A stretch of 64,000 nucleotides of DNA, from positions 62,001 to 126,000 of the forward strand of contig NZ_CVUA01000001.1 in NCBI RefSeq assembly GCF_001282785.1. The letters are read 5' to 3'. A program made the position numbers and the translations under genes. A model generated the notes under the pieces. That model ran no database searches. It was not told the DNA's origin and saw nothing but the letters and a program-made list of their open reading frames with translations. Shown here piece after piece: positions 2,999 through 61,285 of the stretch (positions are counted from its first letter, which is position 1; the number at the start of each line of letters is the position of its first letter). Source of the stretch: Halolamina sediminis (GTDB taxonomy: Archaea > Halobacteriota > Halobacteria > Halobacteriales > Haloferacaceae).

Positions 2999-3148
2999 AT
3001 TCGCTCGGTAATGGGTCGGGGACGCACTTAAACGACAACCCACCGGCGGCGCTCGCCGGCCTCTCTGACGGCGCGTGAGCGCGTGATTTGGGCGTTCCGC
3101 GGTGTCACGATCCGGGGGGCTAAGTCCGGCCGCGCCGTTCGATCACCC

Positions 3149-3928
3149 ATGCAGCCATTCGTTCCTCCGTCGTGGGTCGAGGACGGCGACGCCCTCGTCG
3201 TCGGCGTGCGCGACCCGTGGGAGTACGACAGCATCGGCCACCTGCCGGGCGCAGTGAACGTCCCGTTCGACAGCTTCCGCTCCGACGAGGGGGAGGCCGG
3301 GAAGCTCCCGCCGCGTGCGGAGTGGGAGGCGCTGCTCTCCGACGGCGGGATCGGGACTGACGACGAGATCGTCGCCTACGACGACACGCAGGGCGTGTTC
3401 GCCGCGCGGTTCGTCGTGACCGCGCTGCTGCTCGGTCACGATCCGGAGAAGCTCCACCTGCTCGACGGCGACTTCAGTTCGTGGCAACGGGAGTACGAGA
3501 CGACGACCGACGGCGTCGACCCCGAGCCCGCCACGTACGAGAGCGACTCCGAGGCGGAGACGCCGCTAGTCGACTTCGAGACGGTCCAAGGGTTGCTGCC
3601 GGCAGCCGAATCCGGTGACGTGACGCTGGTCGACACCCGCGAGGACTGGGAGTTCGCCGAGGGGCACCTCCCGGGCGCGGTCCAGCTCGACTGGCGCGAG
3701 CTCGTCGACGAGGACAGCCGCGGGCTGGGACCCGAGAGCGAACTCCGGGCGCTACTGCGAGAGCGCGGGATCGTCCCCGAGACGCGGACGGTGCTGTACT
3801 GCAACACCGCCCGTCGAGTGAGCCACACGTACCTCGTTCTCCGGCAGTTAGGGTACGAGCAGGTCGAGCTGTACGAGGGGAGCCTGACGGAGTGGGTGGA
3901 TCGCAGCGGGGAGCTGGTGACGGAGTAG
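3149..3928 (+). CDS. Second tandem-rhodanese sulfurtransferase
   Basis: A 259-residue protein with two rhodanese domains. Domain 1 (about 5-120) carries VRDPWEYDSIGHLPGAVNVP but no catalytic cysteine (AYDDTQGVFAAR instead). Domain 2 (about 145-259) has LVDTREDWEFAEGHLPGAV and a loop CNTARRVS with the likely catalytic Cys. The loop differs from CRIGERSS of the divergent neighbour, so the acceptor or donor specificity probably differs. It is more compact than the neighbour and is not a recent duplicate. The ATG at 3149 gives a start just ahead of domain 1. A T-rich promoter box is not obvious in the shared 150-base spacer. Confidence 0.93.
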   Translation: MQPFVPPSWVEDGDALVVGVRDPWEYDSIGHLPGAVNVPFDSFRSDEGEAGKLPPRAEWEALLSDGGIGTDDEIVAYDDTQGVFAARFVVTALLLGHDPEKLHLLDGDFSSWQREYETTTDGVDPEPATYESDSEAETPLVDFETVQGLLPAAESGDVTLVDTREDWEFAEGHLPGAVQLDWRELVDEDSRGLGPESELRALLRERGIVPETRTVLYCNTARRVSHTYLVLRQLGYEQVELYEGSLTEWVDRSGELVTE

Positions 3929-7507: not shown

Positions 7508-7798
7508 CAACAGCATCTCGACGCTAGACCACTTGCGACCGCAGGGTGCCGGGCACGAGGCCCGGCACAGCGCCGAGTCCCCACCCCTCCCCCCGCGAGC
7601 GCCGTAATTGGCGCTCGCGAGGCGTCCACCGCGACCGCACCGCGGCCGCGGTGGCGCGTGACGTGAGCGCCTCCGTGCGCGAACGAGCGCGCGAGGGACG
7701 AGTGAACGACCGAAGGGAGTGAACGAGTCGGCTGGGGAGGAACGAGGGCTGTGCGGGGCGGTTGCGGTCACAAGTGGCCAAGCATCGAGCTGCTGTTG
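7508..7798 (+). repeat. Structured dispersed element, copy A
   Basis: Copy A occupies most of the 462-base convergent gap between the oxidoreductase and methyltransferase genes. The left end CAACAGCATCTCGACGC.. and the right end are imperfect inverted repeats of about 36 bases. Inside lie the hairpin GTGCCGGGC-acgag-GCCCGGCAC, the invariant block GAGTCCCCACCCCTCCCCCC, a hairpin GAGCGCC-gtaatt-GGCGCTC, then GCGAGGCGTCCACCGC, a short GCGCG stem and the G-rich right arm. This is the shortest copy: it lacks the two extra hairpins seen in copies B, D and E. A degraded unit similar to the right end follows to about 7840. The strand given is the arbitrary orientation with the C-rich block first. Confidence 0.85.
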
Positions 7799-9318: not shown

Positions 9319-9628
9319 GAGACACCGAGACAGCGGTGTGGCTTCCGTTCCAGTCGAAACGAAGAGTGGAGTCGAAAGAGCCGAAACGGTTCGTGCAGTC
9401 GAAACGGATGGTAGAGTCGAAACGGGAGAGTGCAGTGGAAACGGAGAGTGCAGTGGAAACGGATGATAGAGTCGAAACGGGAGAGTGCAGTGGAAACGGG
9501 GGAAACAGTCGAAGAGGGACGCACAGTCGAAAGAGAGGGAGCAGTCGAAACGCAGCCTCCACTCGAAACAGTGAGTGTACTCGAAACACCGAGCGCACTC
9601 GAAGCACCAAGTGGACCCGAAACGCTCC
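9319..9628. repeat. 18/9-bp minisatellite with CGAAAC core
   Basis: This fills the 359-base gap between two genes. The tetramer GAAA/GAAG of an [A/C]GTCGAAACnG-like unit occurs at 9356, 9374, 9383, 9401, 9419, 9438, 9456, 9474, 9493, 9502, 9511, 9529, 9547, 9565, 9583, 9601 and 9619. Spacing is thus almost always 18 or 9 bases, with three 19-base steps. A first unit with GAGA sits at 9319. Because of the 19-base steps no reading frame is kept through the array, so it is not coding. The core resembles the TCGAAAC centre of the origin boxes 3 kb away but lacks their G run. Confidence 0.85.
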
Positions 9629-22775: not shown

Positions 22776-22805
22776 TTCTGGGGTTGGTTCGTCGGTGTTT
22801 CGTTC

Positions 22806-22867
22806 GTTGGCTACTGGGACAGCAACCGCGACAGCAGCTCGATCGTTGACTACTGGGACAGCAACCG
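22806..22867 (+). repeat. 39-bp tandem units leading into repeat copy B
   Basis: GTTGGCTACTGGGACAGCAA (22806) and GTTGACTACTGGGACAGCAA (22845) begin two 39-base units. A third period starts at 22884 with CTAGACCACTTGTGACC, which is already inside copy B. The units resemble the element's own left end (ACCACTTG.GACC then CAGCAnCTCGAT), so the end has been iterated head to tail. Confidence 0.75.
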
Positions 22868-23216
22868 CAACAGCATCTCGATGCTAGACCACTTGTGACC
22901 GCAGTGCGCCGGATATGGAGTCCGGCGCAGCATCAAGTCCCCACCCCTCCCCCCGCGGCGGCCGACTGTCGGCCGCCGCGAGGCGTCCACCGCCACCGCA
23001 CCGCGGCGGCGGTTGGCGCGCGACGTGAGCAGGGCGGGACCGGCGGTCCCGCTGGCAGTGCGGGCGACGCGTGGGTCGCCCGCACGACGCCTCCGTGCGC
23101 GAACGAGCGCGCGAGGGACGAACGACCGCAGGGAGTGAGTCGGCTGGGGAGGCCTGAGGGCTGTGCGGGGCGGTGCGGTCGCAAGTGGTCTAGCTCACTC
23201 CGCGGTCCTGTTCGCA
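22868..23216 (+). repeat. Structured dispersed element, copy B
   Basis: It lies in the 567-base gap between hisA and hisB. The left end CAACAGCATCTCGATGCTAG is complementary to the right end through GCTAGACCACTTG. Internal hairpins are GCGCCGGA-tatggag-TCCGGCGC, a 12-bp palindromic stem GCGGCGGCCGAC/GTCGGCCGCCGC, GCGGGACC-ggc-GGTCCCGC and GTGCGGGCGAC-gcgtgg-GTCGCCCGCAC. The core blocks are as in copy A. The right flank AGCTCACTCCGCGGTC is shared with copy E but not with A, C or D. Nothing else is recognised between the element and hisB. Confidence 0.85.
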
Positions 23217-27862: not shown

Positions 27863-28154
27863 CAACCGCATCTCGTTCGTAGACCGCTTGTAACCGCAGT
27901 GTGCCGGACACCAGGTCCGGCACAGCCCCGAGTCCCCACCCCTCCCCCCGCCGGCCCCGACCGATGGGGCCGGCGAGGCGTCCACCGCTACCGCACCGCG
28001 GCCGGCGGTGGCGCGAAGCGCACGCGGCATCGTGCCGCGTGTCAGCGCGAGGGATGAGCGAGTGAGCGGAGCGAACGAGCGAATCGGTTGGGGGAGGCCT
28101 GAGGGCTGTGCCGGGCGGTGCGGTTACAAGAGGTCTAGCGTCGAGACGCCGTTG
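27863..28154 (+). repeat. Structured dispersed element, copy C
   Basis: It fills the 409-base convergent gap between the sulfatase and polymerase D genes. The terminal stem shows a compensated change: TTGTAACCGCA on the left pairs with TGCGGTTACAA on the right, where other copies have GTGACC/GGTCAC. Internal hairpins are GTGCCGGAC-accag-GTCCGGCAC, GCCGGCCCC-gaccgat-GGGGCCGGC and a copy-specific CACGCGGCA-tcg-TGCCGCGTG. The C-rich block, GCGAGGCGTCCACCGC and CCGCACCGC are invariant. The right arm has CCGGGCGGTGCGG where others have CGGGGCGG. No other feature was found in the gap. Confidence 0.85.
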
Positions 28155-44779: not shown

Positions 44780-45127
44780 CAACCTCATCTCGTTCGTCGA
44801 CCACTTGCGACCGCAGTGTGCCGGACACGAGGTCCGGCACGGCACCGAGTCCCCACCCCTCCCCCCGCGAGCGCCAAGGTGGCGCTCGCGAGGCGTCCAC
44901 CGCCTCCGCACCGCTGCCGGCGGTGGCGCGCGACGTGAGCAGGGCGAGACCGAAGGTCTCGCTGGCCGTGCGGGCGACGCGTGGGTCGCCCGCACGACGC
45001 CTCCGTGCGCGAACGAGCGCGCGAGGGACGACCGACTGAGCGGAGCGAAGGAGGAAGTCGGCTGGGGAGGTGTGTGGGCTGTGCGGGACGGTGCGGTCAC
45101 AAGGTGCCAACGATCGAGATGCTGTCG
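44780..45127 (+). repeat. Structured dispersed element, copy D
   Basis: It lies in the 573-base gap between the cupin start and the epimerase stop. The terminal inverted repeats run CAACCTCATCTCGTTCGTCG.. against ..ATCGAGATGCTGTCG. Hairpins are GTGCCGGAC-acgag-GTCCGGCAC, GAGCGCC-aaggt-GGCGCTC, GCGAGACC-gaa-GGTCTCGC and GTGCGGGCGAC-gcgtgg-GTCGCCCGCAC. The third has A/T pairs where copy B has G/C, a compensated change. Core blocks are as in the other copies; the right arm has GTGCGGGACGGTGCGG. The short remainder up to 45200 holds a T-rich stretch only. Confidence 0.87.
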
Positions 45128-58870: not shown

Positions 58871-60472
58871 ATGACCGAGGACCAACCCACACCGAAGACA
58901 GACGGGGGCACCGATAGCGTATCGAGCGACGACGTCGCCCTCGACCCGTGGGGCTCCTCGACCATCGAAGACTACCCGAAGCTGTTCGAGCAGTTCGGGA
59001 TCGAGGAGTTCGACGCCGAGGAGGTGCCGGAGCCGCACTACCTGATGCGCCGCGGGGCGATCTTCGGCCACCGTGAGTACGAGCGCGTGGCGGAGGCGAT
59101 GGCCAACGACGAGCCGTTCGCGGCGCTGTCGGGGTTCATGCCGACGGGCGATCCCCACATCGGCCACAAGATGGTGTTCGACGAGCTCATCTGGCACCAG
59201 CAGCAGGGCGGCGAGGTGTACGGCCTGATCGCCGACCTCGAAGCCCACTCCGCCCGGGGGATGTCCTGGGACGAGATCGACGAGCACGCCCGGAGCTACC
59301 TGCTCTCCTTCATCGCGCTGGGGTTCGACCCCGAGGCGGGGGAGCTCTACCGCCAGTCGGACAACCGTGTGCTGCAGGATCTCGCGTTCGAGATCGGCTC
59401 GACCACGAACTTCTCGGAGTTCGAGGCGATCTACGGCTTCGGCGGCGAGACGAACGTCAGCCACATGCAGTCGGTCGTGACGCAGTTGGCGGACATCCTC
59501 TACCCCCAACTGGACGAGCCGATGCCGACGGTGATCCCGGTCGGGCCGGATCAGGACCCGCACGTCCGCTTCGCCCGCGACGCCGCCGCGCGGATGCGCT
59601 ACTTCAAAGTGACCGAGGCGTTCGCGAGCTTCGAACTCGACGACGAGGAGCGTGCGCTGTTTCGCGACCTGTACGACGCGCTGCAGGCGACCGACGACGT
59701 GGACACCGACGACCTGCGGTGTGAGGACGCCGCGGAGCGCCTCCTCGCGTTCGTCAACGATCCCGCGGCGCCCGTCGACGCCGACCCCGCGACCCGAGAC
59801 TCGCTGGTCGAGAAGCTGGAGAACGGCGGGAAGGAGCCGATCCGCCCCCGCGTGCGCTTCCTCGACCGCAACGCGAACGCGGCGGCGTTCGACGCGCTGA
59901 TAGAAGAGATCCCGGGCGAGAAGCGGCGCTACGACGCCCACATCGACAGTTTCGACCTCGACCCCGAGGCGGCCCAGGAGATCGCCCGCGAGGTCGAGAT
60001 CGAGCACGACGGCTACGGGTTCGAGGCGCCGTCGTCGATCTACCACCGCTTCATGACCGGCCTGACCGGCGGGAAGATGTCCTCCTCGATCCCTGCCTCC
60101 CACATCTCGCTGCTCGACGACCCCGAGGACGGCTACGACAAGGTGAAGTCCGCCGCGACGGGCGGCCGGACGACCGCCGAGGAGCAGCGCGAACTCGGTG
60201 GGAAGCCCGACGAGTGCCCGGTGTACGAGCTGTACGCCTACCTGCTCGCGGAGGGCGACGACGAGTTCGCGACCCGGGTGTACGAGGAGTGTGCCGAGGG
60301 CGAGCGCCTCTGTGGCGGCTGCAAGGAGCAGGCCGCCGAGTTGATGGCGGAGTTCCTCGAAGACCACCAGGAGAAGCGGGAAGAGGCGAAGGAGCTGCTC
60401 GAGGACGTGGACATCGACTTGAGCAGTGATCGGCGCGGGCTGGGCGGGCGGGAGGAAGAGGACGCGGTTTAG
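58871..60472 (+). CDS. trpS: Tryptophan--tRNA ligase
   Basis: A 533-residue class I synthetase. The HIGH motif is GDPHIGHKMVFDE and KMSKS is GGKMSSSIPAS. The Trp-binding side includes the VIPVGPDQDPHVRFARD block. Between the two signatures is a charged insertion of about 85 residues (LDDEERALFRDLYDALQ onward) typical of haloarchaeal forms. A C-terminal Cys set (CAEGERLCGGC) may hold a metal. Haloarchaea often carry two trpS genes; this is the one linked to endA. Repeat copy E begins 84 bases after the stop. Confidence 0.97.
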   Translation: MTEDQPTPKTDGGTDSVSSDDVALDPWGSSTIEDYPKLFEQFGIEEFDAEEVPEPHYLMRRGAIFGHREYERVAEAMANDEPFAALSGFMPTGDPHIGHKMVFDELIWHQQQGGEVYGLIADLEAHSARGMSWDEIDEHARSYLLSFIALGFDPEAGELYRQSDNRVLQDLAFEIGSTTNFSEFEAIYGFGGETNVSHMQSVVTQLADILYPQLDEPMPTVIPVGPDQDPHVRFARDAAARMRYFKVTEAFASFELDDEERALFRDLYDALQATDDVDTDDLRCEDAAERLLAFVNDPAAPVDADPATRDSLVEKLENGGKEPIRPRVRFLDRNANAAAFDALIEEIPGEKRRYDAHIDSFDLDPEAAQEIAREVEIEHDGYGFEAPSSIYHRFMTGLTGGKMSSSIPASHISLLDDPEDGYDKVKSAATGGRTTAEEQRELGGKPDECPVYELYAYLLAEGDDEFATRVYEECAEGERLCGGCKEQAAELMAEFLEDHQEKREEAKELLEDVDIDLSSDRRGLGGREEEDAV

Positions 60473-60556: not shown

Positions 60557-61011
60557 GCGAACACGACCGCGGAGTGAGCTCGACCACTTGTGACCGCACC
60601 GCCCCGCACAGCCCTCAGACCTCCCCAGCCGACTCACTCCCTGCGGTCGTTCGTCCTCCGAGGGAGCGGAGCTCCCTCGTGCCCTCGTTCGGTTCACTCA
60701 CGAGGACCTCGCGCGCTCGTTCGCGCACGGAGGCGTCGTGCGGGCGACCCACGCGTCGCCCGCACTGCCAGCGAGACCGCCGGTCTCGCCCTGCTCACGT
60801 CGCGCGCCAACAGCCTCAGCGGTGCGGTGGCGGTGGACGCCTCGCCGGCGCCAATCGCCGGCGTCACCAGAACGCAAAGCGTTCTGGTTGGCAGCCGAGA
60901 GTCGAAGACTCTCGGCGACGCCCGCGGGGGAGGGGTGGGGACTCGGTACTGTGCCGGACCTCGTGTCCGGCACCCTGCGGTCGCAAGTGGCCAAGCATCG
61001 AGATGCTGTTG
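60557..61011 (-). repeat. Structured dispersed element, copy E (expanded)
   Basis: The largest copy (455 bases), inverted relative to A-D, between trpS and the pheST leader. Read on the minus strand it begins CAACAGCATCTCGATGCTTG and ends with AGCTCACTCCGCGGTC, like copy B. The variable site holds a multibranch set: GCCGAGAGTC-ttc-GACTCTCGGC, CCAGAACGC-ttt-GCGTTCTGG and GCCGGCG-attgg-CGCCGGC, with GGCGTC and GACGCC able to close the first two. It also has GCGAGACC-ggc-GGTCTCGC, GTGCGGGCGAC-gcgtgg-GTCGCCCGCAC and an extra CGAGGGAG-ctccg-CTCCCTCG near the right end. Core blocks are conserved. Bases 61012-61126 hold a degraded end unit and no gene. Confidence 0.87.
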
Positions 61012-61162: not shown

Positions 61163-61237
61163 ATGGCGCCCGACACCGCCGCCCGGACGCACCGCCACGC
61201 AGCCGACGGTCGCGGGGTCGGGTTCTTCTTCGCCTGA
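61163..61237 (+). CDS. Putative Phe-rich leader peptide of pheST
   Basis: ATG at 61163 and TGA at 61235-61237 encode 24 residues: MAPDTAARTHRHAADG, then RGVGFFFA. Three consecutive Phe codons (TTC TTC TTC) directly precede the last Ala and the stop. A promoter box at the right distance makes the peptide the first thing translated on the pheS message, and a strong hairpin starts at the base after the stop. This is the layout of bacterial attenuation leaders such as pheL. A chance short frame cannot be excluded, and no such archaeal mechanism is established to my knowledge. Confidence 0.5.
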   Translation: MAPDTAARTHRHAADGRGVGFFFA

Positions 61238-61285
61238 TCGGTCGGCGGAGCCCGGCGCGGGGCGGCCCGGGCGAAACCGACCGAG
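61238..61285 (+). promoter_or_regulatory. Hairpin after the Phe leader peptide
   Basis: TCGGTCGG pairs with CCGACCGA, and an inner GCCCGG pairs with CCGGGC. The outer stem starts at the base right after the leader stop codon, so a ribosome stalled on the Phe codons or released at the stop would change its folding. No U run follows, so it would act on translation or on antitermination of another kind. It lies about 60 bases before pheS. Confidence 0.5.

What the first reader, a model, noticed from the sequence alone, without database searches (positions are those of the whole stretch)
60840..60925. Variable hairpin site that accepts different stems, including a multi-hairpin cassette
Between the invariant C-rich block and GCGAGGCGTCCACC each copy has a different perfect stem: GAGCGCC/GGCGCTC (A, D), a 12-bp GC palindrome (B), GCCGGCCCC/GGGGCCGGC (C) and three consecutive hairpins in E (stems of 10, 9 and 7 bp) with a GGCGTC/GACGCC closing pair. 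Loops are also unrelated. Sequence freedom with strict pairing suggests either that hairpins are inserted or replaced as units, or that inversion and gene conversion keep the arms matched.
Basis: partly seen in the sequence, partly recalled or inferred. Interest (0 to 1): 0.78.

Follow-up and report, generated by a model that had tools for sequence, protein, structure and literature searches.

The report
Mobile double hairpin inside archaeal repeat
In salt-loving archaea of the genus Halolamina, about fifty intergenic repeats per genome carry a hairpin slot whose perfectly paired stems are swapped between copies, flipped, or invaded by a 57-letter two-hairpin mobile element that is widespread in haloarchaea and sometimes sits in frame inside genes.

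Summary
The five window copies belong to a 230-410 bp dispersed repeat with inverted ends, about 52 copies per genome, found in all seven genomes of the genus examined. Of 118 single-hairpin copies, 109 have a perfect 9-bp stem (shuffles: 0.3%), with at least 22 different arms.

Copy E's multi-hairpin cassette is one unit: a 57-bp double-hairpin element (CGTCAYC-hp-TGGCA-hp-GTCGACG), inserted at CG. The same unit sits, with empty sites in relatives, in IS605-type tnpB 3' regions and in frame in dapA. A covariance model finds it in 212 of 243 haloarchaeal genomes and almost nowhere else in the phylum.

Stems are replaced mainly as whole units. Elements at the same site in two species (flanking genes 82-95% identical) are no more alike than elements at different sites; elements within one genome are more alike. 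Some whole elements lie inverted, loops occur in both orientations, and one 21-kb inversion has both ends in element copies. This fits ectopic recombination and gene conversion plus insertion, not RNA-level drift. The mobilising enzyme is unknown. I call it a new variant of a known kind (mitochondrial double-hairpin/GC clusters, Rickettsia palindromic elements).

The parts
60582..60992 (-). copy E of the dispersed repeat (element strand is minus), from inverted end to inverted end
   Evidence: terminal motif CCACTTGYGACCGCA on both strands at 60584-60598 and 60976-60990; alignment to other copies
60862..60920 (+). 57-bp double-hairpin mobile element (with flanking CG) inserted in the variable hairpin of copy E: CGTC, hairpin 60866-60888, linker TGGCA 60889-60893, hairpin 60894-60916, GACG
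   Evidence: covariance model match 83.3 bits, E 1.8e-20 (E is also one of the sequences the model was built from); filled/empty sites of the same unit elsewhere
60840..60926 (-). variable hairpin slot (hp2) of copy E, between GCGAGGCGTCCACC and the C-rich block; remaining host stem GCCGGCG/CGCCGGC
60927..60944 (-). conserved C-rich block GAGTCCCCACCCCTCCCC
   Evidence: 52 matches in the genome, 0 in control
60951..60973 (-). hairpin 1 (GTGCCGGAC-ACGAG-GTCCGGCAC on the element strand), which also receives the double-hairpin element in other copies
60738..60789 (-). second double-hairpin segment (hp4-TGGCA-hp5), present in some copies and absent from others
60653..60708 (-). third optional insert (GTCC..GGCA..GGAC) with a 9-bp hairpin
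7527..7779 (+). copy A; variable hairpin 7594-7619
22887..23190 (+). copy B; variable hairpin 22954-22980
27882..28135 (+). copy C; variable hairpin 27949-27975
44799..45108 (+). copy D; variable hairpin 44866-44890; at this site G005 carries an inverted element with a double-hairpin insert

Best explanation
The slot is one hairpin of a modular, non-coding, inverted-ended dispersed repeat that persists at mostly fixed intergenic sites. Its hairpins change in three ways, all at the DNA level. (i) A 57-bp double-hairpin mobile element (two perfect hairpins joined by TGGCA) inserts at a CG within stems, in the 3' arm, and elsewhere in the genome. Shown: filled and empty sites. Inferred: that it is mobilised in trans by an unidentified recombinase. 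(ii) Whole hairpins and larger segments are swapped among the ~50 copies by ectopic homologous recombination and gene conversion. Shown: loss of orthology at shared sites, within-genome similarity, a 21-kb inversion with both ends in copies. Inferred: that non-reciprocal conversion is the main route. (iii) Hairpins and whole elements invert between their own arms. Shown: reversed loops and whole elements in reversed orientation. Inferred: the enzymology. Because hairpins arrive or flip as units, arms stay matched while the sequence is free.
For: ~52 copies in the genome. 35 of 52 sites also occupied in relative G005, with flanking genes ~82-95% identical. Element similarity at shared sites no higher than in non-matching cross-species pairs (33 pairs, p=0.20) but higher within a genome (p=0.01 and 4e-6; these pairs are not independent). 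Whole-element inversion in 6 of 27 G000-G005 two-flank pairs. Reciprocal flank exchange L007/L044 versus L199/L178 = 21-kb inversion. Double-hairpin element: empty TCTGC-CG-TCTC versus filled TCTGC-CG[55]CG-TCTC in tnpB 3' regions; in-frame 57 bp in dapA of G000 and G003, absent from the 27 other relatives compared. DHE stems 98-99% paired, 91 cells changed on both sides. Stem departures show no consistent G-U excess (hp2 1 GU, 10 CA, 8 other, including mis-centred hairpins; DHE 8 GU, 2 CA, 6 other). In hp2 and hp1 the element lies in the 3' arm of the strand on which it reads forward in every case read (18 hp2 copies, some oriented by eye, and 19 hp1).
Against: No transposase or recombinase is linked to either element. 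Y1 transposase genes in the genome are partial or interrupted, and no long inverted pair of the repeat's ends was seen (list truncated). Conversion tracts were not mapped base by base. Independent re-insertion at preferred sites could also give shared sites with different content. Loop reversal could reflect a restricted set of loops. In one vertical lineage (tnpB) single-sided changes are common.
Confidence: 0.7

Rival explanations
1. The repeat is a functional structured RNA (or RNA-processing signal) and stems drift by compensatory substitution under RNA-level selection.
For: Strong pairing with many double changes in the double-hairpin element; wobble intermediates in the tnpB series (9 G-U cells).
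Against: Hardly any G-U in hp2 stems (1 of 1163 cells); whole elements occur reversed at the same site; no orientation preference relative to tandem genes (27 versus 27); no Rfam match; same-site arms share nothing rather than differing by steps.
Confidence: 0.12
2. Repeated independent insertion: the inverted-ended repeat is an active MITE-like element that targets the same intergenic hot spots in each species, so shared sites are parallel insertions and the stems are simply those of the incoming subfamily.
For: Inverted ends, many copies, species-specific stem repertoires.
Against: 35 of 52 sites are shared with one relative; no target duplication or autonomous partner found; crossover between copies is directly seen.
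Confidence: 0.25
3. Arms are kept matched by replication template switching or hairpin-arm correction (quasipalindrome repair) in situ, without exchange among copies.
For: Perfect arms with free sequence; reversed loops (7 reverse-complement loop pairs against 0.95 expected if all triloops are equally likely).
Against: The same arm sequences recur across copies within a genome, which in-situ correction does not predict.
Confidence: 0.2

Closest known systems
Mitochondrial double-hairpin elements and yeast GC clusters (GC42; PMC4478555, citing Paquin et al. 2000)
   Same: Very short mobile units made of hairpins, two-base direct repeat at the insertion, sporadic presence, merging with one another, changes concentrated in loops
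   Different: Archaeal chromosomes rather than mtDNA; CG rather than AG flanks; longer (57 versus 42 nt); insertion into hairpins of another repeat; some copies in frame in genes
Small mobile repeats (SMR-A) of Haloquadratum walsbyi (PMC3119063)
   Same: Haloarchaeal, no coding capacity, insert preferentially inside palindromes of other repeats and of IS605-type elements
   Different: SMR-A are about 110 bp with prominent inverted ends and no target duplication; this unit is 57 bp, two dissimilar hairpins, CG at both sides
Rickettsia palindromic elements (PMC10969869)
   Same: Palindromic repeat inserted in frame in protein-coding genes (dapA here)
   Different: RPEs are about 150 bp and often intragenic; here most copies are intergenic or inside other repeats
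MITEs of haloarchaea (PMC3119063, PMC10969869)
   Same: The host repeat has inverted ends, is short, non-coding and multicopy
   Different: No matching transposon ends or target duplication found; content at fixed sites is exchanged
PATEs (palindrome-associated, IS605-derived; PMC3119063)
   Same: Short, palindromic, can be reduced to about 52 bp
   Different: No evidence here of IS605 ends; TnpA-like genes in this genome are broken or partial

Membership tests
Mitochondrial double-hairpin element / GC cluster | short unit of two adjacent hairpins | tested here: met
   two 10-bp hairpins joined by TGGCA; 98-99% of stem cells paired
Mitochondrial double-hairpin element / GC cluster | presence/absence at homologous sites with a short direct repeat | tested here: met
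   tnpB filled/empty sites with CG on both sides
Mitochondrial double-hairpin element / GC cluster | located in organelle DNA and homologous in sequence | tested here: not met
   located in archaeal chromosomes; sequence homology to mitochondrial elements not tested
Rickettsia palindromic element | in-frame insertion in conserved genes, absent in orthologs | tested here: met
   dapA of G000 and G003 (+19 codons), absent in 27 other relatives compared
Rickettsia palindromic element | about 150-bp family homologous to an RPE | tested here: not met
   unit is 57 bp; sequence homology not tested
SMR-A (Haloquadratum) | insertion inside palindromes of other mobile repeats | tested here: met
   3' arms of hp1 and hp2
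SMR-A (Haloquadratum) | about 110 bp with prominent inverted ends, no target duplication | tested here: not met
   57 bp, no prominent inverted ends, CG both sides
MITE (host repeat) | terminal inverted repeats | tested here: met
   CCACTTGYGACCGCA and complement bounding copies
MITE (host repeat) | ends shared with an autonomous transposon | tested here: inconclusive
   no long inverted pair seen in the listed matches of the own genome (list truncated)
MITE (host repeat) | target-site duplication | tested here: inconclusive
   copies flanked by further diverged repeats; no empty site recovered for the whole repeat
PATE / IS605-derived element | ends recognised by an IS200-type (Y1) transposase | not testable with these tools
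   only partial or interrupted Y1 genes in the own genome; end recognition needs an assay
Rfam structured RNA | match to a known RNA family | tested here: not met
   no match in window at gathering threshold

The most novel reading that the evidence does not exclude
A haloarchaea-wide class of 57-bp double-hairpin mobile elements without any enzyme of their own that recognise the 3' arm of DNA hairpins, insert at a CG core, tolerate in-frame insertion in conserved genes, and together with ectopic conversion drive continuous rebuilding of hairpin arrays at fixed chromosomal sites.
Probability: 0.35. Interest if true: 0.78.

Novelty: new variant of a known kind. Interest (0 to 1): 0.64.

Why it matters
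Double-hairpin elements are, in the literature found here, described from organelle DNA, and how such tiny units move is unresolved. A unit in most haloarchaeal genera sampled, with filled and empty sites and with relatives among cultivable archaea, would make mobilisation testable in the laboratory. The host repeat also shows that chromosomal positions can be conserved while their sequence is exchanged, which warns against reading paired substitutions in dispersed repeats as proof of a functional RNA.

Tried and rejected
Rfam search of the window gave nothing. Blastn of copy E against plasmid and phage collections gave nothing. A double-hairpin-like core upstream of pheS in Halorubrum proved to be a chance 8-mer: the covariance model finds only the Halolamina salifodinae copy in 80 pheS loci. 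The IS200/IS605 TnpA idea was checked: only partial or interrupted Y1 genes in this genome. A search for an autonomous element sharing the ends found none among the listed matches. The fixed placement of the double hairpin (always 3' arm) first looked like proof of whole-hairpin inversion, but a strand-specific hairpin target gives the same pattern, so it is not used as such.

Full report
What is there. Copy E (60582-60992, element strand minus) lies between a tryptophanyl-tRNA synthetase gene (58871-60472) and the phenylalanyl-tRNA synthetase genes (61343 on) (gene names from the protein sequences). It is one of about 52 copies in a 2.84-Mb haloarchaeal chromosome. The nearest named relatives are Halolamina pelagica and H. 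salifodinae (PheS 88-89% identical). All six other genomes of the genus that were sampled carry the repeat. Each copy runs from an inverted end (CCACTTGYGACCGCA) through hairpin 1, a conserved C-rich block, the variable hairpin (hp2), a conserved GCGAGGCGTCCACC segment and further optional hairpins to the opposite end.

Pairing. In 146 copies from seven genomes, 118 have a single hairpin in the slot. A perfect 9-bp stem is present in 109; 6 have one mismatch and 3 have two; shuffled hairpins reach a perfect 9-bp stem in 0.3% of trials. At least 22 different arms are seen, with clear species preferences: CGCCGGCGC and CGCGAGCGC in the window's genome, CGCGCTCGC and CGCGGGCGC in G005. Departures from Watson-Crick pairing show no G-U excess in hp2 (1 GU, 10 CA, 8 other of 1163 cells, a count that includes some mis-centred hairpins) and a mild one in the double-hairpin element (8, 2, 6 of 1024). 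I read this as pairing established at the DNA level rather than selected in one transcript; that is an inference.

The cassette in E. The three hairpins of E are the host stem plus one inserted unit at 60862-60920: CGTC, a 10-bp hairpin, TGGCA, a second 10-bp hairpin, GACG. The same unit recurs in hp2 and in hp1 of other copies and outside the repeat. In an alignment of 36 units, the two hairpins are 98-99% paired, with 91 cells changed on both sides. A model built from them finds it in 212 of 243 genomes of the order, 73 of 78 genera. In the wider phylum sample only two genomes outside the order match, weakly. The model is specific: one locus in 660 kb of other haloarchaeal DNA. The E-values come from a shortened calibration and are rough.

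It is a mobile unit. In IS605-type tnpB 3' regions (identified from the protein sequence), aligned flanks read TCTGC-CG-TCTCAAG in empty copies and TCTGC-CG[55 nt]CG-TCTCAAG in filled ones, across many genera. In dapA (identified from the protein sequence), G000 and G003 carry a 57-bp in-frame insertion that the 27 other relatives compared lack; the two orthologous inserts have identical stems and differ in loops AAA/AGA and GAA/TTC, the latter an exact reversal. In the slot itself the unit always lies in the 3' arm of the strand on which it reads forward: by the script's table plus reading the three it left undecided or mis-signed, 8 copies forward in the 3' arm and 10 reversed in the 5' arm, with 19 forward copies in hp1. 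Other double hairpins with a GCA-containing linker occupy the slot in some G005 copies and form an optional segment of the host repeat itself.

How stems change. Between G000 and G005, 35 of 52 sites hold an element in both. Yet the elements at shared sites are not more alike than at unrelated sites (mean identity 0.840 versus 0.834, scores p=0.20), whereas elements within a genome are (the pairs are not independent, so these p-values are indicative). The 9-nt arm is the same in 1 of 20 shared-site pairs, 49 of 624 cross pairs, 53 of 253 and 82 of 378 within-genome pairs. Whole elements are reversed relative to both flanks in 6 of 27 pairs. Two copies 21 kb apart in opposite orientation (L007, L044) have exchanged flanks in G005 (L199, L178), the expected product of crossing over between them. 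At the E site itself, G005 has a single hairpin, H. pelagica another, and H. salifodinae a double hairpin fused to hairpin 1 with the C-rich block lost. Hairpin 1 shows three exactly reversed loops against about a hundred in the usual orientation, and seven pairs of reverse-complementary loops occur on identical stems of the double-hairpin element (expected 0.95 if all triloops are equally likely, an assumption that may not hold).

Where a double hairpin is inherited at one place (tnpB), paired changes (10 cells) are accompanied by 9 one-sided changes of the wobble type and 7 unpaired cells, several of them from one decayed copy. So matched arms are not an absolute rule; they are renewed by exchange and insertion in the active repeat.

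Context. Elements sit between convergent genes in 34 of 95 scored copies and divergent ones in 7, with no orientation preference between tandem genes (genes inferred from codon composition). This suggests avoidance of promoters and no strand-specific function; the role of the repeat, if any, is not known.

Literature. Haloquadratum small mobile repeats target palindromes (PMC3119063), yeast mitochondrial GC clusters carry two-base repeats (PMC4478555), Rickettsia palindromic elements insert in frame (PMC10969869), and haloarchaea convert genome copies efficiently (PMC11276520). A full-text search for double-hairpin elements returned papers whose titles concern organelle DNA or, in one case, a fission-yeast genome, and none joined with haloarchaea; subscription papers were not searched, so priority is not established.

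Noticed in passing
window 61164-61238 (+): Short reading frame upstream of pheS ending ...GVGFFFA-stop; similar frames ending GFGFFF or alike occur upstream of pheS in 38 of 80 haloarchaeal loci. It looks like a phenylalanine leader peptide; nothing in the library search described one.
   Followed up: partly
L278 (H. salifodinae) 3094-3152: At the E site the double hairpin joins hp2 to hairpin 1 and the C-rich block between them is missing, as if two inserted units had recombined.
   Followed up: partly
G005 L174, L179, L187 (slot): A different double hairpin (TTCCCGC...GCGGGAA-GCA-GCGAGAGC...GCTCTCGC) occupies the same slot.
   Followed up: no
G000 copies L016 and L069; DHE hits in other genera (L233, L235, L237, L249): Another dispersed sequence with GGGACTGAAAGGGGC or similar borders double hairpins.
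   Followed up: no
window 22800-22877 and flanks of other copies: About 39-bp repeats (CGACAGCAACAGCATCTCGAT...) lie outside the inverted ends and extend them.
   Followed up: no
window 9383-9492: Tandem 18-19-bp repeats GAAACGG...AGAGTGCAGTG.
   Followed up: no
L276 (G005:C1:730400-732400), 1022-1080: Two double hairpins in tandem, in frame within a predicted 666-codon frame.
   Followed up: no
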